From Clostridiaceae bacterium (GTDB taxonomy: Bacteria; Bacillota; Clostridia; UBA1212; DUPL01): 64,000 nt of DNA. How positions within the stretch are numbered: the stretch's first letter is position 1; each line of letters begins with the position of its first letter. The stretch covers positions 1 to 64,000 of the forward strand of contig DUPL01000118.1 in NCBI GenBank assembly GCA_012838385.1. The letters are read 5' to 3'. Made by a program: the position numbers and the translations under genes. A model generated the notes under the pieces. The model was not told where the DNA came from, did not search any database, and worked only from the letters and a program-made list of their open reading frames with translations. Positions 1,003 to 30,358 of this stretch are shown one piece after another.

Positions 1003-3102
1003 TTAACATCGCAAGTCGTCAATATAATCTGTAATGAATTCCTTCCTCGTCAAGACATCGGGCAAATACTTTCTTAGCTTTCCACCCAAGTTATAAACAT
1101 TTACATGAAAGTCATACTTGTCTGGTTTATTTTTCACAATCTCCCTTATAACAGCTCTTACATCCTTTGCATAACTGTCTGGTATTGAAATATATATTGG
1201 TACAAAGCTTGCATAACAAATCTCATTTCGATACCCATGCATCTTTAAAGCATGGGAAAAATACATAATTTCTTTTGTACCAAGCTTCGGCACAAACAAA
1301 CACTTGTCTCCTGTTTGAACCACATCGTCTTTAATACTTATAGCTGCAAACATATTCCGTGATGAAACCAGTCTGTCCAAGGCCCTTTTGCCGAGATATC
1401 CATAAGTTTTATCCGATGATAATACCTCAAACACCTTTTCTACCAGCTTCGTTGGGACTATCAACCTAATGTATGATTTGTATTTGCTCTCCGCATGCTC
1501 ATCATAAGGTTTTACATAAATAACATGCGAATTCTTGTCAATTGAAACAACCTGCCAAGCTCTCCCTGCAAGGGAGAAGGTTTCTTCCTCTTCGTAAGGA
1601 ACCATAACCTGTCCAATTTCCCTGTTCTCATAAATAACGGAGTACTCTATGGCAGTTTCAAACACTGAAAAGAAATCAAAATTTGATATGATTGCTTCTC
1701 CAAGAGAACCTACATGCAGGAATCCCTCTTCCGTTCTTTCCAAAAGCCCGTCGTCGATCATTTTAAGCAGCATGATTCTGTAGTCTTCCTGGGATATGTT
1801 TCTGAAGGGACTCAGTGTCAGAATATATTCTGCAAGTTTTGCTACCCTTGTCTCATGTACGGAAGCAACATGGCTAAGCGTCTGATGAAGAAGGATTTCG
1901 TATGGATATTTTCCTGGGACTACAGCCTCTATCCACCTTTCGTTTAAATATAGCTCAATAATTGCTATGCATTTTACAAGCTCCCAATCTATCTTGTCTA
2001 TAGGCATGTTGCCATAGCCTGGTTTCTCCCTAAAAGTAAAATACATGACTCCTACACCGCTTTTTCGACCGCTTCTTCCAAGTCTTTGAACAAAGGAGGA
2101 TACACTTAGCGGTGCACCTGTTTGAACAATCATCTCCAAATCTCCCACGTCAATACCAAGTTCCAGAGTCAGAGTAGCTCCAACCACCGTCTTTACCTCT
2201 TCCATCTTCATGGCCGTCTCCGCTTCCTCCCTCATGGATTTTGATATGTTGCCATGGTGAACCTTGTATACATCCATTGTCCCCATCTCTTTGGCAATTC
2301 TCCTCAGACTAGCAATGTTTTCTTCCACTTCTGCCTTGCTGTTTGAGAATATTATGCATTGCCTGTTCAATGTCCTTTTGTACAAATCCATAAAGAACTC
2401 CTCTTCCTTTTGGAAATCCACAAAAAGCTTAAGCCTTCTTCCCTTTTCCTCAATCATGGGAACCTGACACGCTCTGTGTGTTCCAGCACATAAAAACTTT
2501 TTGGCGTATGTGTAATCTCCCAAAGTGGCTGACAATCCTATGCGTATGGGTATTCTGTTTATGCTTCTTTGAATTCTTTCAAGGATGCAAAGGAGCTGAA
2601 TCCCCCTGCCACTTCCCATGAAGGTATGAACCTCATCAATGATAATGTATCTTAAATCAGAAAACAGATACTTTATTTCATGCTGTCTCAATACAAGCAT
2701 TGCCTCTAGCGACTCGGGTGTTGTCTGCAGTATTCCTTCAGGTTCTCTTCTCAGTCTTTCTTTGCCACTTGACGAAGCATCTCCGTGCCACTTGGTAACA
2801 GGGATATTTGCCTCCTTCAGCAAATCAATCAGTCTTTCAAACTGATCATTAATCAGAGCCTTTAACGGACTTATATACAATACCGAAACGGAATCAATTT
2901 TTTCCTTGTATATCTTTGAAATAACGGGCAAAAAGGCAGCCTCCGTCTTTCCGGAGGCCGTGCCCGATGCCAATAGCAGATTGTCTTGTGTGTTGAAAAT
3001 ACATTCACAAGCAGCAATCTGTATGTCTCTCAGTTCCTTCCATTTGCTTTTGTATATATACTCCTGTATGAAAGGAGCAAGCTTTTTAAAGGCATTATTC
3101 AT
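1003..3102 (-). CDS. Lhr-like SF2 DEAD/DEAH-box helicase, last gene of the TerB-BrxD-helicase operon
   Basis: A 699-residue superfamily 2 helicase. Walker A GTASGKT is at residues 47-53, followed by motif Ia YISPLKALINDQ, the DEVH box in YIIIDEVHTFMG near residue 155, motif III GLSATLGD, GATLTLELGIDVG, and motif VI QRLGRSGR. This set resembles Lhr-type helicases. The C-terminal 250 residues are not recognised and carry no obvious nuclease motif. The ATG overlaps the ATPase gene stop as ATGA, so translation is coupled, with GGAG 8 bases upstream. Pairing of a DUF2791 ATPase with such a helicase is known from BREX (BrxD-BrxHI) and Ter-associated clusters. Duplex DNA remodelling is inferred; the substrate is unknown. 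Confidence 0.88.
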   Translation of the reverse strand: MNNAFKKLAPFIQEYIYKSKWKELRDIQIAACECIFNTQDNLLLASGTASGKTEAAFLPVISKIYKEKIDSVSVLYISPLKALINDQFERLIDLLKEANIPVTKWHGDASSSGKERLRREPEGILQTTPESLEAMLVLRQHEIKYLFSDLRYIIIDEVHTFMGSGRGIQLLCILERIQRSINRIPIRIGLSATLGDYTYAKKFLCAGTHRACQVPMIEEKGRRLKLFVDFQKEEEFFMDLYKRTLNRQCIIFSNSKAEVEENIASLRRIAKEMGTMDVYKVHHGNISKSMREEAETAMKMEEVKTVVGATLTLELGIDVGDLEMIVQTGAPLSVSSFVQRLGRSGRKSGVGVMYFTFREKPGYGNMPIDKIDWELVKCIAIIELYLNERWIEAVVPGKYPYEILLHQTLSHVASVHETRVAKLAEYILTLSPFRNISQEDYRIMLLKMIDDGLLERTEEGFLHVGSLGEAIISNFDFFSVFETAIEYSVIYENREIGQVMVPYEEEETFSLAGRAWQVVSIDKNSHVIYVKPYDEHAESKYKSYIRLIVPTKLVEKVFEVLSSDKTYGYLGKRALDRLVSSRNMFAAISIKDDVVQTGDKCLFVPKLGTKEIMYFSHALKMHGYRNEICYASFVPIYISIPDSYAKDVRAVIREIVKNKPDKYDFHVNVYNLGGKLRKYLPDVLTRKEFITDYIDDLRC

Positions 3103-4406
3103 AAAGTAAACTCCGCAAACTCATCTGAAACGTCATCATCTTCTGATATCGCAAACTCAAAGCCGCTAGAACCCAGGACCTCTTGCACCGTCTTGTCCGG
3201 GTTTTGATAGAGGATATTCAAAAGTTCAATAAAATCCCTTATTATCTCTCTGGGGGTTATAAAGGTTTGTGCGCCCACTCTTCCAAACTCAATCTTGAGG
3301 AAAGCCACAATATCCTCATCCGTTACCTTTGATTCATACCCATATAGGCCTGAATGGATGGAAACCAATTTTTCAAGAAGCACAAAGGTTTCCTCCTGAG
3401 TAAGCGGCGCAAGCTTTATAACCGGTGCCAGCATGTCGCCATTATTGTTTGTACTTATCCAGCCTGATTCGAGCCTTGATCTTAGGGCCTCATAACTGTA
3501 GACTCCCTTTCTTGGATCTTCCAGAGACTGGGGTGTAAGAGCCATGATGATTCCCATGTGACTTGCTTTCCCCTGCAATGTATCATTGTACATGGAAAGA
3601 ATTTTCTCATAATTGTACTGCCTTGTTATTGCGTGAGGCAGCTTGTATATGTTAACCAGCTCATCAATCAGCATCAACAAGCCTTTATAACCTGCTTTAA
3701 CAAGAAAGGACGCAAACACCTTTAAGTAGTCATACCAGTCGGAATCCGTAATTATCACATTCACACCCAAATCCCTTCTGGCTTCCGTCATGGTTGTATA
3801 CTCTCCTCTGAACCATCTCAGGACATTACTCTTCATTTCCTCATTTCCATCCCTGTACGCACGCCAGTAAAGACTCAACACCTTTGCAAAATCAAATCCA
3901 TGTACCAGTTCCTTCAATTCGCCAACCGTTTCAAATATTCTTAACTCAACTTCAGTAGATAGTTTTGCATCAAAAGCGGACAGTTCCTTTTCCCTCATTA
4001 CTTTCTGCTGTATTGCATATATCCATTTTTCAAGTATCAAGGACAAGGCTCCGCCATCGGGCTTGGTTTTTGTGGACATGTTCTTCATAAGTTCCCTGTA
4101 GGTTGCCAAGCCCTGCTTCTGTGAACCCATAAACCTTCTTTCGGGAGACAAGTCGGCATCCACTACCACAAACCCTTTATCCATGGCATATGTCCTAATG
4201 GTCTGTAAGAGAAAGCTCTTTCCACTTCCGTATCTGCCAACAATAAATCTAAATGAAGCGCCACCATTCTGCACAACATCAATATCACCAAGCAAGGCAT
4301 CTATTTCCTTCTCCCTGCCCACCGCAATATATCCAAGACCAACTCTTGGAACAACTCCACCTTTCAGTGAGTTCATTATTGCGGAAGCAATTCTTTTCGG
4401 AACCAT
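3099..4406 (-). CDS. BrxD-like P-loop ATPase (DUF2791 type)
   Basis: A 435-residue AAA/STAND-like ATPase. Walker A GRYGSGKS is at residues 57-64 and Walker B GLLMLIDEL at 242-250. The preceding RVGLGYIAVGRE and the segment after the P-loop, VVVDADLSPERRFMG, are typical of the DUF2791/BrxD family. The chosen ATG reads MVPKRIA and has GGGAGG 8 bases upstream; an in-frame earlier start would run into the TerB gene and lacks a better site. It lies 4 bases after the TerB gene and overlaps the helicase start by 4 bases. In BREX this family acts with the helicase; here pglX, pglZ, brxA/B and brxL are all absent, so it is not a BREX locus. Confidence 0.87.
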   Translation of the reverse strand: MVPKRIASAIMNSLKGGVVPRVGLGYIAVGREKEIDALLGDIDVVQNGGASFRFIVGRYGSGKSFLLQTIRTYAMDKGFVVVDADLSPERRFMGSQKQGLATYRELMKNMSTKTKPDGGALSLILEKWIYAIQQKVMREKELSAFDAKLSTEVELRIFETVGELKELVHGFDFAKVLSLYWRAYRDGNEEMKSNVLRWFRGEYTTMTEARRDLGVNVIITDSDWYDYLKVFASFLVKAGYKGLLMLIDELVNIYKLPHAITRQYNYEKILSMYNDTLQGKASHMGIIMALTPQSLEDPRKGVYSYEALRSRLESGWISTNNNGDMLAPVIKLAPLTQEETFVLLEKLVSIHSGLYGYESKVTDEDIVAFLKIEFGRVGAQTFITPREIIRDFIELLNILYQNPDKTVQEVLGSSGFEFAISEDDDVSDEFAEFTL

Positions 4407-4410
4407 ATAG

Positions 4411-7400
4411 TTAACCTCCCAAAACTTTTTTAATGTCATCTAAATAATCTTCAATTATCGTGCAATCCACATCCACTACGGTATCGCCTGTTGTTTCAAG
4501 AGCCACCTCATTTATGTCCTCGATAACAACTTCCAACATTACACCAAGTTTCCTGGCAACAGAATATGCATCCTCTTTGTTGGCTATTGCCTTTAACAAA
4601 TGCATCTGAATATCATTCAGCATTCTTACAAACGAATTATATGGATTCTCTCCTGAAACATCAATTATATCACAAATATCATTTGTTTTCTCTTCCGCTA
4701 CTGCAATTTCATCTTCAACTTCTTCCTCATCATTAATAACAAGCTTTTCAGTTAGCTTTTGGGATACCTCTCTAATATCATCCAGCTTGTCAAAATCAAT
4801 TTCCACCTTTTCAATTTTGGGAGTGGGTATCGCATCATCAACGAATACTCCTTTTTCTCCCAAAACTTCTGCAGCAGCTGCCATAACGCAGTCGCCAAGC
4901 TTCTCCGCCCCTATGGTCTCAATCAAATACCTTATCTCATCACTTGTTTTATCCGTAATATCCAGAGGAGACTTGAGAGTTCCTTTGAAGGACAACAGAT
5001 TTCTCAAGGCAATTTCTGCCAGTTTGACTATGATACCATATAGAACATAAGTCGATTCTTTTAAACCACAGTATCCACAACGGCTTATGCATATTTCGTC
5101 CTTCCATTCATATGCCAAATAATCATTTATAACTGCCGTCTTCTTTCCTTTTCTTAATCTGACGTATTGCAAATCATTAAAAATCCCGTCTTTACGTTCA
5201 AGCTTTTGTCTTTCGCCCAATATATATGCAGGCAAAGAAAGGTCGTATTTAGAAAAGAGTTCGTCCAGTTTTTCAAGCACCTTTGGCATGCAGAGATCTA
5301 TAAGATAACCATCACTTCCTTTTCCAAAGGCACTTTCCCTTGCCCTGTATGGACTTTTTTCAAGTATGTACTTGCTGGCACAATCATAGTCGCCTTCAAA
5401 AATCTTGTACAGCCCGTAGATGGTATAATATCTCTTTGGAAACTTTTTCACATAAAATGAATAGGTTTTTTCCAAATCATAGGCAATGTATGCATCCATG
5501 ATGACACTCTCGATCAAGTCATCGATGTTATCCGAAACCTGGCTGTATCCATGCCAGAATTTTATCAGCTTGTCCATCAATTCCTCTTCATTCTCAACTC
5601 CTATCAAATTGACAAGCTCGGACAAATACAAAAGAACCATGTTTTTGTTTGCAGGCTTGAATATTCCCCGCCTTACATCTGATCTCCAATTCAGGTAGTA
5701 ACGGTTTGCAAAATCATAATCATGAGAGACTCTCTGTTTCTCATATACATCAACATCTTCAAGAAGGCATGCCTGAGTATAAAAATCAATAGGATTATAG
5801 TAGTCATACCTATAAGTTTGCCTGCTGGAAATCCTTTGTTCTTTAGCTTCAGAACTTACCAATGAAAGCAGATGCTTGTTTTGTTGAACTACTTCAGGAT
5901 CATAATATCTCTTTTTTCCACCAAGAACAAAGCTTTCCAATCTTTGCTTTTCCTTTATCTTCACATCCTTGTAAATCTTTTTAACCTCATTGGTCAAAAT
6001 ATGCACAAATCTCATTGATTCAATGATTTCTGCATGTTTTGAGTATCTTTCCAGTCCTGAAAAGATAATATCAAAAGGAATATCTGAAAAATCTCCTTTT
6101 TTGTACCTTCTTGCTGCAGTGGCGATGATATTTACGACATACTCGCAAAACTTCTGTTCCCTCTTATCAAAATCACAGCCGTAATAGAACAAGGAACCAT
6201 TTTCAAAAGTATACTTAATCCCCTTGTTAATATATGTTTCCTCTTTAATCCTGCACTCCTTTTTATCAATAAGGTATCCTAGTTGCGAAAAGGACACTTC
6301 TTCTTTTATGACATTACCCAGCAATAGACTTCCAAGCGAAAATGCGCATTCCCTTTCAAGCAGATCTGACGCCTCCTTAAGAGCAACGGGAAGAACCCTT
6401 TTTAGAACACTCTGAACTTCCTTTGAAACACGTATTCTTATCCTTCTGTTAAAATACTCATATACATTTGTGTAATTGCCATGAGCAATCTCATCCATAA
6501 TCAAGGTATTGCCAATATACCCTTCAGGAAACCTTTCGCAAACCTCTGCAAAAGGCATGTCCAATCCTTTAAGGACATAGAACTCAATAATAGTGTCCTC
6601 CATTAGTTTATCAATATCAGTGACATTCCTCATACCTTTCCAGAAGTCTAAAAGTTTTGAAAGAGTATCCAGCTCATCATTACAATTTGCAAGAAGTATT
6701 GTTTCGTTCAGATACAGTTTAATATATCCGATATCCGCCTTTTCATAAATCCCTTTTCTGATCTTTGTTCTCCATGAGAAATAGCCAAGCAGTTGCTGGT
6801 TTGTCATATGGGTATATGTAGGATATACATTTAAAAAATCCACCAATACCACATCTTCATTGTACTCGACCTTTTCCATGAATTTAACTTGTTTTAGAAA
6901 TAACTCCGCACCATAAATCATTCCTTTGGGAGTTCTTGAAAGAGATCTCATCTTATCGAACTTGTCTTTAATCCGAATCTGCCTGTTGCGTTCAGCAACT
7001 TCTTCATGCATAACGATAGCTATTTGCTTATGGATTACCTTAACCAGTTCTCCTGTATCTATTATGCTGCGCATCTCTTCGTCCTGGTAAAGACTCGTAT
7101 CATATATTTTCAAGGGTTTTTCACCAAGAATTTCCCTTATACTTGATTCCATATGCTTAAGTATGAAAGATATGAGTCTTGCATGTTTCCTGACAGGGAA
7201 GAGCTTTTCCGCATACAGGATGTTGTCTTGTACAAAATATCTTTCCGTTTCTGATATAACGTACTCAGTGAATCCATAGTCCTTTTTCACAAATGGATTG
7301 TATTTGAAAGGCTCGTAAACATCCACTTTTCTTTCAAACAGCATTTCATTGAACGAAATACCCTTCTGGGAAAAGTATTCACTCACACCTTTCATAACAA

Positions 7401-8043
7401 CTTCAAAAACGCTGTCAATATATCTTCCTTTTTCACTTCTGTAAAAAGAGCTTCCAAGGATTTTGTGTTGGGCACTCATTTTGTCGAAATACGGCAGAGT
7501 ATTTTCATAATCACCGGAATATATTCTGTCTTCGTAAGATGCTATTTGAAACTTTTCATCAAAACTCTTGACTATGTCTTTGAAAGAACCTACGGAATGA
7601 AGGATGCAGTAGTCTTTGATATTGTCATAAAACTCAAGATCAGTAAGCTCGTCGCATTTGTTCCATAAATCAATCAGAAGGGCAAGTCCTTCCTCGCTTG
7701 TTACACCCACCAGATTGACAAGCTCGTTTATGTATACAAGAATGTATTCTCGTTTTGTTTGCTTGTAATTGTTCTCCAAAAACTGTGTGCGCCAGTACAC
7801 GTAGTGATAGAGATTGGATTCCGTCATGTCTTCGAAGGCTCTAATGCTTCCAAGACCATCCGGTCTGCCCTTGTACGAATTATAAAAGCGATAGTCCTTT
7901 AAAAAGTCTGCACATTTAAAAAAACGGACAAAAGGCTCCCCATTGTCCCTGGATAATTCACGTACCTTGCTGATTGCTTCGTGATCCAGTATCTTTTCTG
8001 ACAACAATGTGAAAGCCTTTTCCGTTAAATTCTTTTCCTTCAT
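4411..8043 (-). CDS. Giant protein with three TerB-N-like modules and a TerB-C-like tail
   Basis: This 1,210-residue protein has no signal peptide or membrane span. A signature around W-R-[TS] followed by an L-Y-L-x-E-L-V-N-like helix occurs three times: YVYWRTQFLE at 81-90 with VYINELVNLVGV, YFSWRTKIRKG at 421-431 with LYLNETILLA, and YYLNWRSDVRRG at 782-793 with LYLSELVNLIGV. This matches the TerB-N domain as I know it. Spacing of about 340-360 residues and shared downstream segments suggest whole-unit triplication. The end (IEDINEVALETTGDTVVD near 1,175) matches TerB-C. Genes of this type with a DUF2791 ATPase and a helicase were described in analyses of Ter-dependent stress systems. The start overlaps the amidase stop as ATGA. 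Function is unknown; a scaffold or sensor role for the ATPase and helicase is a guess. Confidence 0.83.
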   Translation of the reverse strand: MKEKNLTEKAFTLLSEKILDHEAISKVRELSRDNGEPFVRFFKCADFLKDYRFYNSYKGRPDGLGSIRAFEDMTESNLYHYVYWRTQFLENNYKQTKREYILVYINELVNLVGVTSEEGLALLIDLWNKCDELTDLEFYDNIKDYCILHSVGSFKDIVKSFDEKFQIASYEDRIYSGDYENTLPYFDKMSAQHKILGSSFYRSEKGRYIDSVFEVVMKGVSEYFSQKGISFNEMLFERKVDVYEPFKYNPFVKKDYGFTEYVISETERYFVQDNILYAEKLFPVRKHARLISFILKHMESSIREILGEKPLKIYDTSLYQDEEMRSIIDTGELVKVIHKQIAIVMHEEVAERNRQIRIKDKFDKMRSLSRTPKGMIYGAELFLKQVKFMEKVEYNEDVVLVDFLNVYPTYTHMTNQQLLGYFSWRTKIRKGIYEKADIGYIKLYLNETILLANCNDELDTLSKLLDFWKGMRNVTDIDKLMEDTIIEFYVLKGLDMPFAEVCERFPEGYIGNTLIMDEIAHGNYTNVYEYFNRRIRIRVSKEVQSVLKRVLPVALKEASDLLERECAFSLGSLLLGNVIKEEVSFSQLGYLIDKKECRIKEETYINKGIKYTFENGSLFYYGCDFDKREQKFCEYVVNIIATAARRYKKGDFSDIPFDIIFSGLERYSKHAEIIESMRFVHILTNEVKKIYKDVKIKEKQRLESFVLGGKKRYYDPEVVQQNKHLLSLVSSEAKEQRISSRQTYRYDYYNPIDFYTQACLLEDVDVYEKQRVSHDYDFANRYYLNWRSDVRRGIFKPANKNMVLLYLSELVNLIGVENEEELMDKLIKFWHGYSQVSDNIDDLIESVIMDAYIAYDLEKTYSFYVKKFPKRYYTIYGLYKIFEGDYDCASKYILEKSPYRARESAFGKGSDGYLIDLCMPKVLEKLDELFSKYDLSLPAYILGERQKLERKDGIFNDLQYVRLRKGKKTAVINDYLAYEWKDEICISRCGYCGLKESTYVLYGIIVKLAEIALRNLLSFKGTLKSPLDITDKTSDEIRYLIETIGAEKLGDCVMAAAAEVLGEKGVFVDDAIPTPKIEKVEIDFDKLDDIREVSQKLTEKLVINDEEEVEDEIAVAEEKTNDICDIIDVSGENPYNSFVRMLNDIQMHLLKAIANKEDAYSVARKLGVMLEVVIEDINEVALETTGDTVVDVDCTIIEDYLDDIKKVLGG

Positions 8044-8858
8044 CTTTTGGTTACATCATTCTCCTTGAGAAACTCTACAATTGCATTCACAATTGTATCC
8101 TGATATTCGTCACTTACAAGCTTCTTCTCTTCCTCTTCATTGGTCAAATATCCAAGCTCGAGTATCATACACGGACCTTCTGTCCAGTTGATACTTGTAT
8201 AATTGTCGCTTCTTCGGACATTTCTATTTGCGGCCCCTGTTGCATTTACAAGCTTCTCCATAAGCATGTTTGCAATTGCAAGCTCATAGTTGGCAAGTGC
8301 CTTGGTTTCCTCACTGCCGTCACCCTTGTCCCTAATATATATCTCCATGCCGTGTACATCCTTGTTGTCCACTCCATTCAAATGAATCCTGAGTGTAAGA
8401 TGGGAACCGAACTCATTTGACATAAGAGCTCTTTCCTTGTTTGATATGTCCACGTCATGAGTCTCTCTTGTCATAAGTACCTCTGCGCCTGCATTCATCA
8501 AAGCATCACGCAGCTTAAGACCAATCTTCAAAGTCAACATATACTCAGGTGTACCTGTAGTTGCACCCTTTGTACCTGCCGCAATCTTTCTCTTTTTTTC
8601 ACTGCTCCACGGAGCCATTTCTTCAAGTTCATTGTTCGCTTTGCCCTGATGACCAGGATCAATGCATATCTTGAGACCATGCAAAGGAAGAACTTCTGTT
8701 GGAGAAGGAGTTGGTCCCTCCCCTTCTCCCGGTGTTTTATCAATGTTATCAGTTAATGTCGGTTCCGTTGTTTCATCTGCTGGTACGTTGCTGTTTGCAC
8801 ATCCTGTAATAAGGAGTGCAATCAATACCAAAATTGCTGTTATCTTATGTGTTTTCAA
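8040..8858 (-). CDS. Lipoprotein N-acetylmuramoyl-L-alanine amidase (Amidase_3)
   Basis: A 272-residue membrane-anchored peptidoglycan amidase that would cut between MurNAc and L-Ala. The N-terminus is a lipoprotein signal with lipobox ITGC at residues 18-21, then a Thr/Pro/Glu linker to about residue 60. The Amidase_3 domain shows ICIDPGHQG (zinc His), LRIHLNG (zinc His) and the catalytic Glu in MILELGYLTNEE. The start is UUG, 9 bases after GAAGGAG. It begins 16 bases after the rhamnosidase stop with no terminator between, and its stop overlaps the TerB gene start as ATGA. An extracellular wall hydrolase translationally coupled to a cytoplasmic ATPase/helicase system is unusual. Confidence 0.92.
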   Translation of the reverse strand: MKTHKITAILVLIALLITGCANSNVPADETTEPTLTDNIDKTPGEGEGPTPSPTEVLPLHGLKICIDPGHQGKANNELEEMAPWSSEKKRKIAAGTKGATTGTPEYMLTLKIGLKLRDALMNAGAEVLMTRETHDVDISNKERALMSNEFGSHLTLRIHLNGVDNKDVHGMEIYIRDKGDGSEETKALANYELAIANMLMEKLVNATGAANRNVRRSDNYTSINWTEGPCMILELGYLTNEEEEKKLVSDEYQDTIVNAIVEFLKENDVTKR

Positions 8859-8874
8859 CTCGTACTACTCCTTC

Positions 8875-11340
8875 TTATACAATGGTATAGCTGCCCGGTT
8901 CGTCAAGGTTGATTCTTATACGATTGCCAGCCCTTTCAAACTCAGATACGAGAGCAACCTTGTCATTTATTCTTATCGTAGAATTTTCGTCCTTGTTTAT
9001 AAGGGGGAAGCACAATGAAGCCCTGGTTGGCACAGTGCAGTTATAAACAAAGGTTCCGTTTTCCATTCTCCAACTGCTCTTTACTAGACCGCTGGCAGAC
9101 TCATACTCCGCTTCAACATAGGTGATGTTCTCCTGACCTTCAGGCAACTCATCTTTTGTTCTGGTATCAGGCATTGGTCTTAAAACGACATGTTTGAAAC
9201 CAGGCTCGTTAAAGTCATTGTTAATACCCGCCATGTACTTGAACATCCACTCCAACACAGCACCGTATGCATAGTGGTTGAAGGAGTTCATTCCAGCATC
9301 TCCGAATCCCTTTTCAATTGTATATGAATTCCATCTCTCCCAAATTGTTGTTGCTCCCTGATATACGCTGTACAGCCAGGATGGATCTTCCGTCTGCAGA
9401 AGCAACGAATACGCTATATTGCTTTTTCCAAACTCACTCAATGTCTGGTTCAATATACCGGTTCCGATAAAACCTGTACTCAACCTGTATCCGTTGTCCT
9501 TTATCTTCTGCTCCAGACAGTCCGCTGCTTCCTGAACATAGGATTCTGGCAGCATGTATGTCTTTAGAGCCAGGAGATATGCAGTCTGGGATGTTTCCTT
9601 AAGCTTTCCATTCTCGTCAAGGAATTTCTCCTGGAAATGCTTCTTGATATCCTCATATAGTTTTGCATACTCTTCTTCTTTTTGCGAACCTATTGCCCTT
9701 GCCATATCCCTCATGTACATGGTGCTCAAGGCAAACATGCAGCATGAGACGTATTCCTTGTCGGTAGGCTCATAGCTTAGCCAGTCTCCATATACCGCAT
9801 TTCCTCCACCAAGGCCAAAGCTTCTCAAGTACTGAATGTATTTGTCCATGGCTTCGAAATTGTCCTCTATTATCTTTTTGTCTCCATACATGCGGTAGAT
9901 TACATATGGAACAATAACACCGGCATCCGCCCATGCAGCATTGCCCTCTCCCACCACTCTGACACGGGGAGCTACATCCGGGAAAGCTCCATTCTCACTT
10001 TGGCAGTCTCTCATATCCTGCATCCACTTGTGGAAAAACTCTCGAACGTCCGCATTGTAGCATGCCGCATTGACAAAAATCTGCGTATCGCCTGTCCAGC
10101 CAAGTCTTTCATCCCTTTGTGGACAGTCGGTGGGTATGCTTAAATAGTTTCCTCTCTGTCCCCATATCACATTACTGATTAGCTTGTTTACATCCTCATT
10201 AGATGTTCTTATTCTGCCTGTTTCCTTTGTATCAGAACCTACCACGCAAGCCTTGATATATATGAGGACAATGTCGTCATCCGCTGTAATTTCAATGTAC
10301 CTGAAACCAAAGAATGCATGGGTTGGATTGTATGTCTCTCCAAACTCGTCCCCTCTTAAGATATATTGTATCTTGGACTTTGCGCTCCTGTAATTTTCAG
10401 TATACAAACTGCCCTTCGGTCCGTCATTGCCTCTTGATTTATCTCCGCTGTCATTGAGCATTTCAGCAAATCTCACAAGAATGCTTGTGCCTCTTTTGCC
10501 TTTTACGGTGAATCTAGGCCATCCAACCAGGTTCTGACCAATGTCTATCAAAAGGGTTTGACCCTTCCTGATTTTAACTTCCTGGCCCAGTTCAAACTCA
10601 TTTACATAAACAACCTCACCATAATCAGTTCCGTTGTCCCTTATTCCCTCATACAACTTCATGCTGACAGGAAGCATGTTCAAAAATTCCCTCTCCCTTA
10701 TTGCAGGACCTATATGCTTTGTGACCTCGCCATTAAAGTTTGTATAGATTAACGCATGGTTCCAATCAGAGTCATCAAAGCCGGGATATTTAAAAGAATC
10801 ATTGTCTACTCTGGCATCGTAGAACTCTCCATCCCAGATGTCCGCACTTAATATGGCGCCACCTACTTTGCATTTCCAGTCCTCATCCGTACCAATATGG
10901 TTTGTGGTGCCGTCTTCATAAGTAAAATCAAGCCTTGCAAGAAATGCCACACTATCCTTTGGATAAGTATCAATATTGATTCTTCCCTGCCACCAACCAG
11001 GAGATACAATGCCTGTTATGCAGTTTACGCCGTCTGTAAGATACTCTTTAACATCGTATTCATAATACAGAACTCTCTTTCTGTATTCGGTCCATCCAGG
11101 CTTTAAAACATCCTTTCCTACCTTTATGCCATTAATAAAGAGCTCAAATATGCCCAAAGCAGTTGCTTTAACAACAGCTTCTTTTACCTCTTTCGAAACT
11201 TTGAATTCCCTTCTAAATATTGGCAGACCACCACCGTTTTTTAAAGGCGACTTCCTGTAATCAGCAGTGCTCTGATTCTCCCAAGGATTAACTCCTTTTT
11301 CCACTCTACTGTATTCAATACTTATCCATCTAGCATCCAT
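8875..11340 (-). CDS. Alpha-L-rhamnosidase (GH78)
   Basis: An 821-residue family 78 glycoside hydrolase that releases terminal alpha-L-rhamnose from plant glycans or flavonoid glycosides. The hallmark STDCPQRDERLGWTGD lies near residue 405, with the general acid and its neighbours in that region, and WERWNSYT near 670 is also typical. The N-terminal 350 residues form the usual beta-sandwich domains. There is no signal peptide, so it probably acts on imported oligosaccharides. The ATG follows AGGGGGATCGAAAT. The promoter lies in the 3' end of trmFO. It is first in the unit that continues into the amidase, TerB, ATPase and helicase genes. Confidence 0.95.
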   Translation of the reverse strand: MDARWISIEYSRVEKGVNPWENQSTADYRKSPLKNGGGLPIFRREFKVSKEVKEAVVKATALGIFELFINGIKVGKDVLKPGWTEYRKRVLYYEYDVKEYLTDGVNCITGIVSPGWWQGRINIDTYPKDSVAFLARLDFTYEDGTTNHIGTDEDWKCKVGGAILSADIWDGEFYDARVDNDSFKYPGFDDSDWNHALIYTNFNGEVTKHIGPAIREREFLNMLPVSMKLYEGIRDNGTDYGEVVYVNEFELGQEVKIRKGQTLLIDIGQNLVGWPRFTVKGKRGTSILVRFAEMLNDSGDKSRGNDGPKGSLYTENYRSAKSKIQYILRGDEFGETYNPTHAFFGFRYIEITADDDIVLIYIKACVVGSDTKETGRIRTSNEDVNKLISNVIWGQRGNYLSIPTDCPQRDERLGWTGDTQIFVNAACYNADVREFFHKWMQDMRDCQSENGAFPDVAPRVRVVGEGNAAWADAGVIVPYVIYRMYGDKKIIEDNFEAMDKYIQYLRSFGLGGGNAVYGDWLSYEPTDKEYVSCCMFALSTMYMRDMARAIGSQKEEEYAKLYEDIKKHFQEKFLDENGKLKETSQTAYLLALKTYMLPESYVQEAADCLEQKIKDNGYRLSTGFIGTGILNQTLSEFGKSNIAYSLLLQTEDPSWLYSVYQGATTIWERWNSYTIEKGFGDAGMNSFNHYAYGAVLEWMFKYMAGINNDFNEPGFKHVVLRPMPDTRTKDELPEGQENITYVEAEYESASGLVKSSWRMENGTFVYNCTVPTRASLCFPLINKDENSTIRINDKVALVSEFERAGNRIRINLDEPGSYTIV

Positions 11341-22207: not shown

Positions 22208-23650
22208 TCACAAATTATACCAGATACAAACCTCACTTTCAGAGACAGTTATCTTCTCAACCACAATCTTTACTATCTTCCTCTTTACTTCCCCGCTTAA
22301 ATCCTTATATGATTTTAATGTTTTAAGAAGCAAATTAAGAGATTCTGTTTTATTCTCCACAGCCCGTTCCAGTCTATCAATTTCATCCTTGTACCTTTCT
22401 ATTGCAGACTTAAGCTCAAGGTTCATACTGTCGTACATATCCGCAGTAATACGTCCATCAAGTCTGTCATAGTACAATATTTTCTGTTTTCTCAAAGAGG
22501 ATTCAATAAGATTTCTTAATATATTTATTTCCTCATCCCTCTCTTCATTTATCTGTGCCAGCTCTTCAATACAGTTAGGATTACTCTTTACATAATCACT
22601 CAGCACCATATAAATATCGGAAAAAACAATATTGGATAAATAACTCTCACTTACAAAATGTCTTGAACAAGCAGCCCTGCCTTGTTTTTCATAAGTCTGA
22701 CATGTATATCCATCCGCTCCTTTTGTCTGTTTTCTGGAATACATCCTTTTATTGCAGTCAGCACAAAATACAAGACCTTTGAAAATACTTAATCCACCCT
22801 TGTGATTTCCACTACCTTTTTGTCTTTTAATTCTTTCCTTTTGAACCTTGTCAAATGTTTCTTCGTCGATAATTGGTTCATGGGTGTTTTTTGTAATCAC
22901 CCACTCGGACTTGGGCAACCTTCTTGTTTTCTTGCTTTTATAGCTGACTCTTTCACTTACTCCCTGCACGGTATCTCCCACATAGACGCGGCTTGTCAGG
23001 ATTCTTTTTATTTGCGTTACGTTCCATTTCTTCTTGCCAATACCTTTTTCCTCAAGTATTTCGGAAATCTTCTTGTATCCATAACCTTCAAGATACAACT
23101 TATATATCTCCCTAACCACAAAAGCTTCCTCTTCACAAACTTCCAGCTTGTTTCTAACGTCCTTTGATTTTACATAACCATAAGGAGGATTCCCAATATA
23201 TTCTCCCCTTTCAATCTTATGTCTCAAATTCGCCCTAATTTTTCTTGATATGTCAATTACATATCTTTCATTAAACCAGCTGTCTATACCTACAGTCTCA
23301 GCATCCCTCAAAGAATCATATCTTCCGTCATAAGTTAGAACCCTTACTCCATACTCTTCCACACTTTCAAGAAAAAGAAGCGTTCTGGCATTGCTTCTCC
23401 CAAGCCTTGACAAGTCTTTAGCAACAAGAATGTCAAACTTTCCAAAGGATGCATCTTCAATTAGTTTCTTAATGCCAGGACGCTCAAAGTTGATACCCGA
23501 GTAATTGTCATCCTCATATACTTTATATACAGCGCCTAAATTTTTTTCTTCAACAAATTTCTCTAAAAGACTTTTCTGTGTTTCGATGGTTTCATAAGAC
23601 AATCCAAGGTCATCCCTGCTCTCCCTTACATAAATGGCTACCTTTTTCAT
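22208..23650 (-). CDS. Large serine recombinase
   Basis: A 480-residue serine recombinase. The catalytic Ser is residue 11 in IYVRESRDD; AKDLSRLGRS near residue 80 supplies the arginines. The recombinase domain covers about 155-265 (RGEYIGNPPYGYVKS onward). A zinc ribbon follows (CADC...CQTYEKQGRAAC, about 300-340), then a coiled coil. This is the layout of phage and conjugative-element integrases and of SpoIVCA-type enzymes, though at the short end. Flanking genes are chromosomal and no excisionase, cargo or duplicated attachment site was found. It may be a relic of an element or act at a distant site. Confidence 0.93.
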   Translation of the reverse strand: MKKVAIYVRESRDDLGLSYETIETQKSLLEKFVEEKNLGAVYKVYEDDNYSGINFERPGIKKLIEDASFGKFDILVAKDLSRLGRSNARTLLFLESVEEYGVRVLTYDGRYDSLRDAETVGIDSWFNERYVIDISRKIRANLRHKIERGEYIGNPPYGYVKSKDVRNKLEVCEEEAFVVREIYKLYLEGYGYKKISEILEEKGIGKKKWNVTQIKRILTSRVYVGDTVQGVSERVSYKSKKTRRLPKSEWVITKNTHEPIIDEETFDKVQKERIKRQKGSGNHKGGLSIFKGLVFCADCNKRMYSRKQTKGADGYTCQTYEKQGRAACSRHFVSESYLSNIVFSDIYMVLSDYVKSNPNCIEELAQINEERDEEINILRNLIESSLRKQKILYYDRLDGRITADMYDSMNLELKSAIERYKDEIDRLERAVENKTESLNLLLKTLKSYKDLSGEVKRKIVKIVVEKITVSESEVCIWYNL

Positions 23651-27027: not shown

Positions 27028-27063
27028 AAAAAGGCTATTGGCATATAAAGCCATAGCCTTTTT
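27028..27063. terminator. Bidirectional terminator between the cupin gene and the restriction locus
   Basis: AAAAAGGCTATTGGC and GCCATAGCCTTTTT form a long stem with a short loop and T/A tracts on both sides. It serves the cupin gene on the plus strand and the DpnII-type endonuclease remnant on the minus strand. Confidence 0.92.
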
Positions 27064-27900
27064 CAATTGCCAGTCAAGAGTGATGTCAACAATCCTTTTT
27101 CTAGATCATTAATGTTGTACACCGTTTCCATGACATTAAAAGTTTCTCTCAAATTATCTTTTGCAGAAGTCCATCCAATTCCATCTGTAATCCAGACCAG
27201 CTTAAAACCGTCTATCCTTTGAGCTTCCTGATACAGCATTTTGTAGCTTCTGGCAGTCTCATTAAGCTTGGAACCATGACCAGTATAAAAATTTGTTTCA
27301 ATACCATAAATCATTTTGTCTGCTCTTACAACAAAATCAAACTTTTTTTCAGCCCTCTCTTCATCTCCAAACACGGACAAATCAAGACCAAACCTGTTTT
27401 TGATTTCTGTCAGCTTCATTTCCTTGAAATAGTTGATGTTCTTAACAAAACCTGCTGCAATTATGTACTTCTCCACCAAATCCTCCATGGAATCTCTGCC
27501 CCTGTTCTTTCTGCACCGAAAGCATAATCCACCAAATTGCTGACTATATGATTCTGGAGCATTTCAAATAGTCCCGTTTCCCGCATGAAATGTTTGTACT
27601 GCTCTATGCTGTACATCATCCTGCTAAAATTGTAAACCAGGACTCCTTGCAAATCATTTATGTAGATCTTGCTTTTTCTAACCGCCATCAAAATGGTATG
27701 CATTTCAGTGTCTCAGGATACCTGGTCACAATATCTTCAAAATCCTGCTCTATGTTCTTTGACCCGACCAGAGCATTAAGTATATTCAACTCTATTTTGT
27801 ACTGCTCCACATTCCTCACAACTTTGTTAAAATCCGTGTAGTACTTGTAGCTTGCAATACTTTTCTTCAATGTTGCAAACCACTCATCAAAGTTCCTCAT
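27063..27900 (-). pseudogene. DpnII-type (GATC) restriction endonuclease, broken by two frame disruptions
   Basis: Three frames together give a DpnII/MboI-like endonuclease. The first encodes MRNFDEWFATLKKS and ALVGSKNIEQDF, the second YSIEQYKHFMRETGLFEMLQ and NHIVSNLVDYAFG, the third NRGRDSMEDLVEKYI to FYTGHGSKLNETARSYK. The first break is at AAAA, 27,690-27,693: adding one base would restore the frame. The second is near 27,500-27,516, where about 8-9 residues expected from DpnII are also missing. The PD-(D/E)XK-like core (KKFDFVVR...GIETNFYTG) lies in the third frame, so no active enzyme is expected. Sequencing error could explain the first break but hardly the second. It overlaps the end of dpnA by 14 bases. 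Confidence 0.85.
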
Positions 27901-28692
27901 TTTTCACCTTCTCCAATCTCCTTTTGGTTATCTCCATATACTCCTCACAATTGTCAATACCAACAAATTTTCGCCCAAGTCTGACAGCTTCCACTCCAGT
28001 AGTTCCCGAACCACAGAATGGATCAAGAACCAAGTCTCCTTCCTGGGTTGAAGCTAGAACTATTTTTTCAAAAGATATCTTGGTTTTTGTGTTGGATGTC
28101 TACCTTCGGTCTTTTCCGATGGCTTTGTAAGACTGCCCGTCCATACATCCTTCATTTGCTTCCCATTGTTTAATTCTTTCATCTTTTCGTAGTTGAAATA
28201 GTGCTTTGCCTTTTCATCCTTTTTTGCCCACAGGATGGTTTCAGTAGAATGTGTAAAACACTTGCATGCAAGATTTGGAGGTGGATTTGTTTTCTGCCAT
28301 GTAATATTATTCAATATCTTGTACCCTTCCTGCTCCAATGCCATGCCAATGGAATATATGTTGTGTAAAGTGCCAGAAATCCAAATGGTACCATTAGGTT
28401 TCAGAACTCTTCTACACATCCTTATCCATCTGCGGTTGAATTCATGTTTTTCTTCTATAGTTGTAGCATTTTCGTTAAGCTTGTCCCATGAACCTTTATT
28501 AACAGACACCATTTTTCCTCCCTGGCATGTGATACCGTTGTTGCTTAAAAAATATGGTGGATCTGCAAAAATCATATCAAAACATTCTGATTTCATTTTT
28601 CTCAGTATTTCAAAAGAATCTCCCAGTACAAGAATTGAATCGTCTGTTTCATAATAACTTGGTATGTTGTTTTCAAATACACTTTCCCTCAT
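27887..28692 (-). pseudogene. dpnA: DpnA-like adenine-specific DNA methyltransferase, frameshifted
   Basis: This is the second methylase of DpnII-type systems, which in pneumococcus methylates GATC on single-stranded DNA. The first 210 codons include DMIFADPPYFLS (motif IV) and GRHPTQKPRYLLKK, then hit a stop. With one more base in the A6 run at 28,063-28,068 the frame continues as IVLASTQEGDLVLDPFCGSGTTG to the natural end. The lost tail contains the SAM-binding FxGxG motif, because this class has motif IV before motif I, so the truncated form should be inactive. The ATG is 1 base after the dpnM stop. A real mutation, slippage or an assembly error are all possible. Confidence 0.85.
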
Positions 28693-28693
28693 T

Positions 28694-29536
28694 TTATCTC
28701 CCTTGGTAATTGCAAATAATTATTTCCTCTCCTACACGATTGTTCGCATCTGAATTTATCATGCGCTTAACACTTACTACATCCATCCTGTACCCCTTAT
28801 TGCCATATAACTCGTTAATGAACTCAGTGTTGTGGTTTGTCAGCATGCAGAAACATCCTCTTTCTGTAAGTTCATCAAAAAGTCTTGCAAGTCTAATATG
28901 GCTTTCAACATCAAAACCTTCTTTTGTATAGGATTCAAAGGAGGTGGGATTAAGAGGGGCATACGGACTGTCAAGAAACACAAAATCCCCTTCCTTAGCT
29001 AAGTGGCAGGCATCTTCAAAATCCCCTTCAAGGATTGTTACATTCTTAAGGTATTTCGATACTTCAAGGATTGATTCAGCATCTACAGATCCCCTTCTTG
29101 AGTTGTTATACGGTACATTGAACAACCCTTGTGCGTTCACTCTGTATAGCCCGTTATAGCAGTGCTTGTTTATAAACACTAACATCGCGGCAAGTTCTAC
29201 ATCATACTCCTGCCTCATTAGCTTGTCGTTGTATTTTTCGCGTATGTGATAGTAGTATTTTTTTCCATCATCCCACATCTCATCATCAAGCTTGTTAACA
29301 ACATCTAAAAATTCATCAGGTGATGTGCCTATCTGTCTGTAGGCATTTATCAATGCCTTATTTATGTCGTTTATAACTGCGTTATCAGGAAGCAAATCAA
29401 ATAAAACCGCACCACCACCTACAAAGGGCTCGTAATATGTATTAAACTTTTCAGGCATTCTCTCTCTTATATGTGTTAGAAGCTGGCGTTTCCCACCAGC
29501 CCATTTGACAAAAGGAGCTATTTTAGTCTTCTGCAT
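28694..29536 (-). CDS. dpnM: DpnM/Dam-type DNA adenine methyltransferase (GATC)
   Basis: A 280-residue D12-class N6-adenine methyltransferase. Motif I is FVKWAGGKRQLL near residue 9, followed by YYEPFVGGGAVLFDL and NGLYRVNAQGLFNVPY, matching DpnM/Dam. Motif IV, usually DPPY, reads DSPY in FVFLDSPYAPL, an unusual change. The ATG giving MQKTKIAPF has GGGG 8 bases upstream. The frame is intact while the two genes after it are broken, so the chromosome may still be GATC-methylated. Order dpnM-dpnA-endonuclease equals the pneumococcal DpnII locus. Confidence 0.92.
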   Translation of the reverse strand: MQKTKIAPFVKWAGGKRQLLTHIRERMPEKFNTYYEPFVGGGAVLFDLLPDNAVINDINKALINAYRQIGTSPDEFLDVVNKLDDEMWDDGKKYYYHIREKYNDKLMRQEYDVELAAMLVFINKHCYNGLYRVNAQGLFNVPYNNSRRGSVDAESILEVSKYLKNVTILEGDFEDACHLAKEGDFVFLDSPYAPLNPTSFESYTKEGFDVESHIRLARLFDELTERGCFCMLTNHNTEFINELYGNKGYRMDVVSVKRMINSDANNRVGEEIIICNYQGR

Positions 29537-29614
29537 CAATATTTCCCCATCTCTACAATAACTTATCGTACATCCCCTATTATAACTACAATTCTGCAAA
29601 ATAACAAACGCGTA

Positions 29615-30358
29615 TTACTTCACAAACACAAATATATACTCGTGTGCAATCATTAAGAAATTCTTCTTTACATTCCTCCAATATGCCGTTGATGTGCAAT
29701 TATGCTGCTCCTTGATAATAATTTCCTTCAATGCAAACCCTGCCTGTATAAAACACTCCATTACACGAAAACCCAAAGGAACTATCTTTCCCTGCCTTCT
29801 TGTGTCGCCCATCATTACCGTGCACATTTTTTCCCGTTTCAATACTCTGAAGGATTCCCTTGCCACCACTTTCATTTTTTCAACAAACTCATTAACTTCC
29901 AATAGTGATATGTCTTCTGCTATTCCATTTGAATATTTGATTATGTTTGCATACGGTGGATGTGTACATACAAAGTCCATTCTGCCATCTTCGATAAATT
30001 CAAGATTCATTGCACTGCCATTTACAACATGAATTATGGATTTTGTACTGCATGTAAAGTTGAGATTGCTTTTCGTCAGTTGAACAGATTGCGGATTTAT
30101 ATCAACACCTATTGCATTTCGTCCCAATAATTTTGCTTCGACCAATGTAGTACCGCTGCCAACAAACTGGTCCAGAATCCAATCACCGGGCTTAGTGTAC
30201 AAAAGTATTAGATTCCTTGGTATGTATGGTGACCAGTTCCCCCTGTATCTACCTGAATGAGTCGCCCAACTACCTCGGTCGGGGAAAGACCATACTGTAG
30301 TTGTTTCAAGCATGAAATTTTCAGGACTTAAACGAATAAAGCATACCTCCTTTGTCAT
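29615..30358 (-). CDS. DNA methyltransferase of N4/N6 type with an HPPY motif
   Basis: A 247-residue methyltransferase. The SAM motif is ILDQFVGSGTTLVEAKLLG near residue 62, followed by GVDINPQS, and the catalytic tetrapeptide is THPPY near residue 138, an atypical first residue in place of D/S/N. N-terminal SWATHSGRYRGNWSPYIPRN is typical of stand-alone methylases of this order. It is additional to the two methylases of DpnII systems. The first codons contain a strong ribosome site, AAAGGAGG, within ATGACAAAGGAGG, so the true start may be further in, for example ATT at codon 8; I kept the ATG. Specificity is unknown. Confidence 0.8.
   Translation of the reverse strand: MTKEVCFIRLSPENFMLETTTVWSFPDRGSWATHSGRYRGNWSPYIPRNLILLYTKPGDWILDQFVGSGTTLVEAKLLGRNAIGVDINPQSVQLTKSNLNFTCSTKSIIHVVNGSAMNLEFIEDGRMDFVCTHPPYANIIKYSNGIAEDISLLEVNEFVEKMKVVARESFRVLKREKMCTVMMGDTRRQGKIVPLGFRVMECFIQAGFALKEIIIKEQHNCTSTAYWRNVKKNFLMIAHEYIFVFVK

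What the first reader, a model, noticed from the sequence alone, without database searches (positions are those of the whole stretch)
4411..8043. Triplicated TerB-N-like unit in one 1,210-residue protein
Three W-R-[TS] plus LY-x-[NS]-E-L-V-N-type signatures recur at residues about 84, 424 and 786, with similar downstream blocks (G-x-Y repeats, FPEGYIG versus FPKRYYT). Family proteins I know have one TerB-N. A triple unit could be a scaffold with three binding sites, or an evolved decoy surface.
Basis: partly seen in the sequence, partly recalled or inferred. Interest (0 to 1): 0.6.

Follow-up and report, generated by a model that had tools for sequence, protein, structure and literature searches.

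The report
Shango defence protein with tripled body
The gene is the first of three genes of a known but mechanistically unsolved bacterial anti-phage system (Shango), and in this one genus its sensor-like protein carries its main domain three times in a row instead of once, a natural variant that could show what that protein does.

Summary
The 1,210-aa protein at 4411-8043(-) has three TerB_N matches, each over Pfam's cut-off, and one C-terminal TerB_C. The repeated unit is larger than TerB-N. A profile of 77 single-unit homologues matches three times, at residues 23-358, 319-646 and 686-1209, so the whole SngA body (TerB_N plus an alpha/beta middle) is tandemly repeated and only the last copy keeps TerB_C. 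Units 1 and 2 are predicted confidently with the same order of helices and strands.

The next two genes are SngB and SngC, so this is a complete Shango anti-phage operon.

The triple unit is rare. It occurs in the window's genome and its one congener held. About 100 other TerB_N-bearing genomes have one match per ORF, and no other SngA of 95 matched has three. The units are 19-22% identical, score equally and keep the family's invariant residues. They share a G-[DN]-Y-x5-Y motif found in no other SngA examined, which points to an old intragenic triplication.

Mechanism (scaffold, pseudo-oligomer, diversified sensors) is untested. New variant of a known kind.

The parts
4411..8043 (-). sngA: 1,210-aa protein, three SngA-body units plus one TerB_C
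   Evidence: PADLOC SngA E=1.2e-68, 3 stretches; Pfam TerB_N x3, TerB_C x1
7024..8043 (-). unit 1 (residues about 1-340): TerB_N plus alpha/beta middle, no TerB_C
   Evidence: profile of 77 single-unit SngA, residues 23-358, i-E 1.9e-34; AlphaFold2 model pLDDT 89.6, pTM 0.83
5974..7023 (-). unit 2 (residues about 341-690): TerB_N plus alpha/beta middle, no TerB_C
   Evidence: same profile, residues 319-646, i-E 5.5e-39; AlphaFold2 model pLDDT 88.8, pTM 0.85
4822..5973 (-). unit 3 (residues about 691-1074): TerB_N plus alpha/beta middle
   Evidence: same profile, residues 686-1209 including TerB_C, i-E 5.8e-63; body alone 105.9 bits
4411..4821 (-). TerB_C domain, single copy (residues about 1075-1210, plus stop)
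   Evidence: Pfam TerB_C E=1e-13, residues 1076-1204
7549..7842 (-). TerB_N match of unit 1
   Evidence: 41.3 bits, over cut-off 25
6508..6984 (-). TerB_N match of unit 2
   Evidence: 55.4 bits, over cut-off 25
5446..5703 (-). TerB_N match of unit 3
   Evidence: 40.2 bits, over cut-off 25
3099..4406 (-). sngB: AAA+ ATPase of the BrxC/BrxD family, 435 aa; GGGAGG before ATG at 4406 (the longest ORF runs from 4439)
   Evidence: PADLOC SngB E=1.6e-187; Pfam BrxC_BrxD 550 bits; start site
1003..3102 (-). sngC: SF2 helicase of the BrxHI/Lhr-like group, 699 aa
   Evidence: PADLOC SngC E=1.2e-203; Pfam DEAD, Helicase_C
8040..8858 (-). lipoprotein N-acetylmuramoyl-L-alanine amidase directly upstream; its stop overlaps the sngA start by 4 bases (ATGA); operon neighbour, not a known Shango part
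   Evidence: Pfam Amidase_3 E=2.2e-39; same 4-base overlap in G001; absent beside other Shango loci examined
4818..5526 (-). 709-base tract identical to the congener's sngA within about 90%-identical flanks (recombination tract, or MAG chimera)

Best explanation
The gene is sngA of a complete, probably working Shango operon (sngA-sngB-sngC). In an ancestor of this genus the SngA body (TerB_N plus middle domain) was tandemly triplicated inside the gene, leaving one TerB_C at the end. All three units have been kept and have diverged. Most likely mechanism (inferred): SngA is the recognition or scaffold subunit, and TerB_C with the last unit docks to the ORC-like AAA+ ATPase SngB, which loads or triggers the helicase SngC on invading DNA. 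Three bodies on one chain give a covalently linked, multivalent SngA, in effect a pseudo-oligomer, in place of several separate single-body subunits. Shown here: the operon, the three units, their shared predicted secondary structure, signs of shared ancestry, and purifying selection. Inferred: the binding roles, the docking and the link to oligomer state.
For: Complete SngA/B/C by PADLOC profiles, genes abutting or overlapping by 4 bases. Three full-body matches. No unit is degraded: body-only scores 105.8, 119.8 and 105.9 bits; F88, Y126, W129, R130, Y149, E152 and R353 of the family model are present in all three. Units 1 and 2 modelled at pLDDT 89 with 86.5% secondary-structure agreement over aligned core residues, against 42% by chance. 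Shared motif G-[DN]-Y-x5-Y in the three units and in no other of 97 SngA apart from the congener's. W326, 99% conserved in single-unit proteins, is replaced in all three. Tree: the three units group with two single-unit SngA (ultrafast bootstrap 95 / SH-aLRT 94) and a single clade is not rejected (p-AU 0.28). SngC's nearest relative outside the genus is also L107. Purifying selection, omega 0.25, 0.20, 0.15. The BrxD-loads-BrxHI idea is from PMC12839542; SngC groups with BrxHI, DruE and DpdJ (PMC12278908).
Against: No experiment found links any Shango protein to a mechanism, and the oligomer state of SngA is unknown. The units are as different from each other (19-22%) as from other species' proteins (18-20% on average), so branch order is unresolved and acquisition of separate close relatives followed by fusion is not strictly excluded. 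Both genomes are fragmented assemblies (143 and about 420 contigs), so the system has not been seen in a cultured strain.
Confidence: 0.5

Rival explanations
1. Division of labour: the three units are no longer equivalent. Each has diverged to recognise a different ligand or phage trigger, or one became regulatory, so the protein is a multi-specific sensor.
For: Units only 19-22% identical yet all under purifying selection. Patchy divergence between two species, with blocks at 79-89% and blocks at 99-100% nucleotide identity, as expected of allele shuffling in defence genes. Other SngA proteins also vary at the N-terminus (TM2 in L038, PG_binding_1 in L156).
Against: The same invariant residues are kept in all units and the body scores are near equal. 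No ligand known. Only two genomes, so rates per unit are confounded by recombination.
Confidence: 0.3
2. Neutral or decoy elaboration: the extra units are passengers, or a surface that soaks up phage inhibitors, with the last unit plus TerB_C doing the work.
For: Only the last unit carries TerB_C, and PADLOC SngA aligns best over residues 719-1208.
Against: Units 1 and 2 are no more degraded than unit 3 in profile score, keep the invariant residues, have confident folds and show omega 0.20-0.25. They have persisted long enough to reach 20% identity.
Confidence: 0.15
3. Fusion of two or three separately acquired sngA genes rather than triplication of one.
For: Deep divergence; in the best tree the three units do not form one clade.
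Against: Single clade not rejected (p-AU 0.28). Shared G-[DN]-Y-x5-Y and loss of W326 in all three units. All three fall in the same small subgroup with L107 and L136.
Confidence: 0.15
4. Not Shango but another TerB system: type 2 BREX, or the Ter stress-response operon.
For: SngB and SngC are homologous to BrxD and BrxHI; TerB domains are known from Ter systems.
Against: SngB and SngC profiles score far above BrxD and BrxHI (622 against 167 bits; 677 against 412). No PglZ and no TerD anywhere in the assembly, which is 92.5% complete.
Confidence: 0.03

Closest known systems
Shango anti-phage system (SngA TerB protein, SngB ATPase, SngC helicase; Millman et al. 2022, and Johnson et al. 2023, PMC10250203)
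   Same: All three proteins, gene order and tight coupling; SngA has TerB_N and TerB_C; SngB and SngC match strongly.
   Different: SngA body tripled (one unit in every other SngA examined outside the genus). No central TerB (PF05099) domain, which the four plasmid SngA proteins of Pseudomonadota and haloarchaea examined carry. Operon shared with a lipoprotein amidase and an alpha-L-rhamnosidase, beside topA/trmFO rather than in a recognisable defence island.
BrxD-BrxHI pair of type 2 BREX (Pgl)
   Same: SngB and SngC are homologues of BrxD and BrxHI.
   Different: No PglZ in the genome; no methyltransferase, PglW or BrxC gene in the operon; SngA has no BREX counterpart known to me.
TerB-N/TerB/TerB-C proteins of Ter stress-response systems
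   Same: Share TerB_N and TerB_C.
   Different: No central TerB match; no TerD in the genome.

Membership tests
Shango | SngA: TerB-domain protein matching the SngA profile | tested here: met
   PADLOC SngA E=1.2e-68; TerB_N x3, TerB_C x1. Central PF05099 not found, as in the other clostridial SngA scanned with Pfam.
Shango | SngB: BrxC/D-type AAA+ ATPase with intact Walker motifs | tested here: met
   PADLOC SngB E=1.6e-187; GRYGSGKS and LLMLIDELVN in the sequence, in columns conserved across 13 SngB.
Shango | SngC: SF2 DEAD/DEAH helicase | tested here: met
   PADLOC SngC E=1.2e-203; Pfam DEAD and Helicase_C.
Shango | Three genes adjacent, in the order A-B-C | tested here: met
   4411-8043, 3099-4406, 1003-3102, all on the minus strand.
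Shango | Confers phage resistance | not testable with these tools
   Shown for Pseudomonas aeruginosa PA14 Shango (PMC10250203), not for this operon.
Single-unit SngA (usual form) | One TerB_N body per protein | tested here: not met
   Three here and in G001; one in each other TerB_N ORF listed.
Type 2 BREX | PglZ and PglX accompany BrxD/BrxHI | tested here: not met
   No PglZ in the 92.5%-complete assembly; PglX was not searched.
Ter stress-response operon | TerD/TerZ-family proteins present | tested here: not met
   No PF02342 match in the assembly.

The most novel reading that the evidence does not exclude
The triple-unit SngA is a naturally fused form of an SngA assembly that elsewhere forms from separate subunits (or a three-specificity sensor). 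This single chain would then fix the number and order of SngA units in the Shango complex and open a mechanism that has not been solved, built on a body fold with no counterpart found among solved structures.
Probability: 0.3. Interest if true: 0.6.

Novelty: new variant of a known kind. Interest (0 to 1): 0.42.

Why it matters
Shango protects against phages in the laboratory, but no mechanism was found in the papers searched. A natural protein with three linked, equally kept SngA bodies and one TerB_C predicts how many bodies act together and which part docks to the ATPase, and it offers clean unit-deletion tests. The body itself has no solved relative: no sequence hit and no fold hit in the PDB.

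Tried and rejected
Self-blastp: no off-diagonal hit, because the units are too diverged. Are long SngA elsewhere also multi-unit? No: L071, L037, L038, L129, L120, L147, L151 and L156 have one TerB_N with other N-terminal extensions; L037 has a second TerB_C match. Mobile origin: the window SngA has no relative by tblastn in plasmids or phages and no confirmed relative in viral contigs, although Shango itself is common on plasmids (681 records by SngB). Fold searches of units 1 and 2 against PDB, and of unit 2 against predicted viral proteins: nothing at E<=0.001. Amidase or rhamnosidase as a Shango accessory: beside sngABC only in this genus. First dN/dS script failed on a region with dS=0; that region proved to be the identical tract.

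Full report
Observation. Pfam finds TerB_N three times and TerB_C once. Searched as separate stretches, all three TerB_N matches exceed the curated cut-off. The repeats are too diverged for blastp to see.

Anatomy. I collected SngA from loci that carry the neighbouring ATPase and built a profile of 77 single-unit proteins (529 positions). It matches the window protein three times: residues 23-358 (model 66-396, i-E 1.9e-34), 319-646 (model 28-354, 5.5e-39) and 686-1209 (model 23-522, 5.8e-63). Shuffled copies of the protein gave no hit. The repeat is therefore the whole SngA body, TerB_N plus an alpha/beta middle, and TerB_C occurs once at the end. Body-only scores are near equal (105.8, 119.8, 105.9 bits).

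Residues. Of the columns most conserved in single-unit SngA, F88, Y126, W129, R130, Y149, E152 and R353 (model numbering) are present in all three units. The tryptophan at 326 (99% conserved) is missing from all three, and Y151 is N, N and S. In an alignment of 70 bodies only two residues are invariant, the arginine of the W-R motif and a second arginine at residue 303 of unit 1; both are in all three units.

Structure. Units 1 and 2 were predicted with that alignment: pLDDT 89.6 and 88.8, pTM 0.83 and 0.85. Their helices and strands run in the same order, with 86.5% agreement over 244 aligned residues against a shift-null mean of 42%. Both jobs used the same pool of sequences, so this is support rather than independent proof. 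Neither model has a PDB counterpart at E<=0.001, and the sequence has none either.

Context. The next two genes match the PADLOC profiles SngB (E=1.6e-187) and SngC (E=1.2e-203), and the window protein matches SngA (E=1.2e-68). This is a complete Shango operon. Shango from P. aeruginosa PA14 blocks several phages (PMC10250203); I found no mechanism in the papers searched. SngC groups with BrxHI, DruE and DpdJ (PMC12278908), and BrxD has been proposed to load BrxHI on DNA (PMC12839542). The genome holds no PglZ and no TerD, so it is neither BREX nor a Ter operon. The only SngB relative in the genome is this one.

Operon. sngA starts inside the stop of a lipoprotein amidase gene (ATGA overlap), itself 16 bases after an alpha-L-rhamnosidase gene. 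A perfect sigma-70 consensus lies upstream of the latter at 11418-11390(-) (a pattern match, not proof of function). The whole arrangement from topA to sngC is kept in the congener G001, but the amidase and rhamnosidase are not beside other Shango loci. The names topA, trmFO, dprA and nrdR are my reading of the sequences, not family searches.

How rare. TerB_N was searched in samples of the class (391 genomes), the order (31), the phylum (399), a second class (400) and two further orders (51, 11). By my count about 100 genomes other than the two of this genus have TerB_N; each listed ORF has one match. Among 97 SngB-linked SngA candidates, 95 matched the profile and only G001's has three units. 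Other long SngA have one TerB_N and other N-terminal parts. These are samples; a triple form elsewhere is not excluded.

Origin. The units are 19-22% identical to one another and 18-20% on average to single-unit SngA. In a 43-row tree they group with L107 and L136 (ultrafast bootstrap 95, SH-aLRT 94); their order is unresolved, and a single clade is not rejected (p-AU 0.28). G-[DN]-Y-x5-Y is found in the three units (residues 177, 522, 884), also in G001's, and in no other of 97 SngA; a looser form is in L107 and L136. SngC's nearest relative outside the genus is also L107 (long branches meet there, so this is weak). An old intragenic triplication is the simplest account.

Selection and recombination. 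Between window and G001, omega is 0.25, 0.20 and 0.15 for units 1-3 and 0.44 for TerB_C. sngA is a mosaic: a 709-base identical run (4818-5526) and a block of about 99% (6750-7340) lie beside blocks of 79-89%, in a region that is otherwise near 90%; sngA dS is 0.165 against 0.30-0.64 for the other genes compared. This suggests recombination between species, as often seen in defence genes. Both genomes are fragmented assemblies, so a chimeric assembly is not excluded, and the omega values are affected by it.

Mechanism. Shown: operon, three retained units, signs of shared ancestry, predicted secondary structure. Inferred: SngA recognises or scaffolds, TerB_C and the last unit dock to SngB, SngB loads SngC, and the triple chain is a covalent multivalent form. 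Whether the units are equivalent (pseudo-oligomer) or specialised (several specificities) cannot be decided here. A pure decoy is disfavoured by constraint on all three units.

Verdict.

Noticed in passing
window 4818-5526 and 6750-7340 versus G001 (L036): sngA is a mosaic between two species: a 709-base run of complete identity and a block of about 99% inside a region otherwise near 90% identical. Recombination, or chimeric assembly.
   Followed up: partly
window 8040-11340(-): A lipoprotein N-acetylmuramoyl-L-alanine amidase and an alpha-L-rhamnosidase are co-directional and tightly coupled with sngABC, behind a 12/12 sigma-70 consensus at 11418-11390(-). Seen with Shango only in this genus.
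   Followed up: partly
window 27063-30358(-): DpnII-type restriction-modification cluster (DpnII nuclease, D12 adenine methylase, DNA methylases). In the window the nuclease ORF is 141 aa against 287 in G001, and one methylase ORF 210 against 272, so the nuclease looks truncated or frameshifted here.
   Followed up: partly
window 22208-23650(-): Large serine recombinase (Resolvase, Recombinase, zinc ribbon domains), also present in G001 at the same place.
   Followed up: no
L037:6134-9739 (G162): A 1,201-aa SngA with one TerB_N but two TerB_C matches.
   Followed up: no
L038:5867-9004 (G156) and L156:2534-5980 (Methylobacterium nodulans plasmid): SngA proteins with extra N-terminal domains, TM2 and PG_binding_1, suggesting that some Shango systems are tied to the envelope.
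   Followed up: no
L155 (Halocatena salina plasmid), H25 and H26: Shango-like operon on a haloarchaeal plasmid, and SngB-helicase pairs on two more.
   Followed up: no
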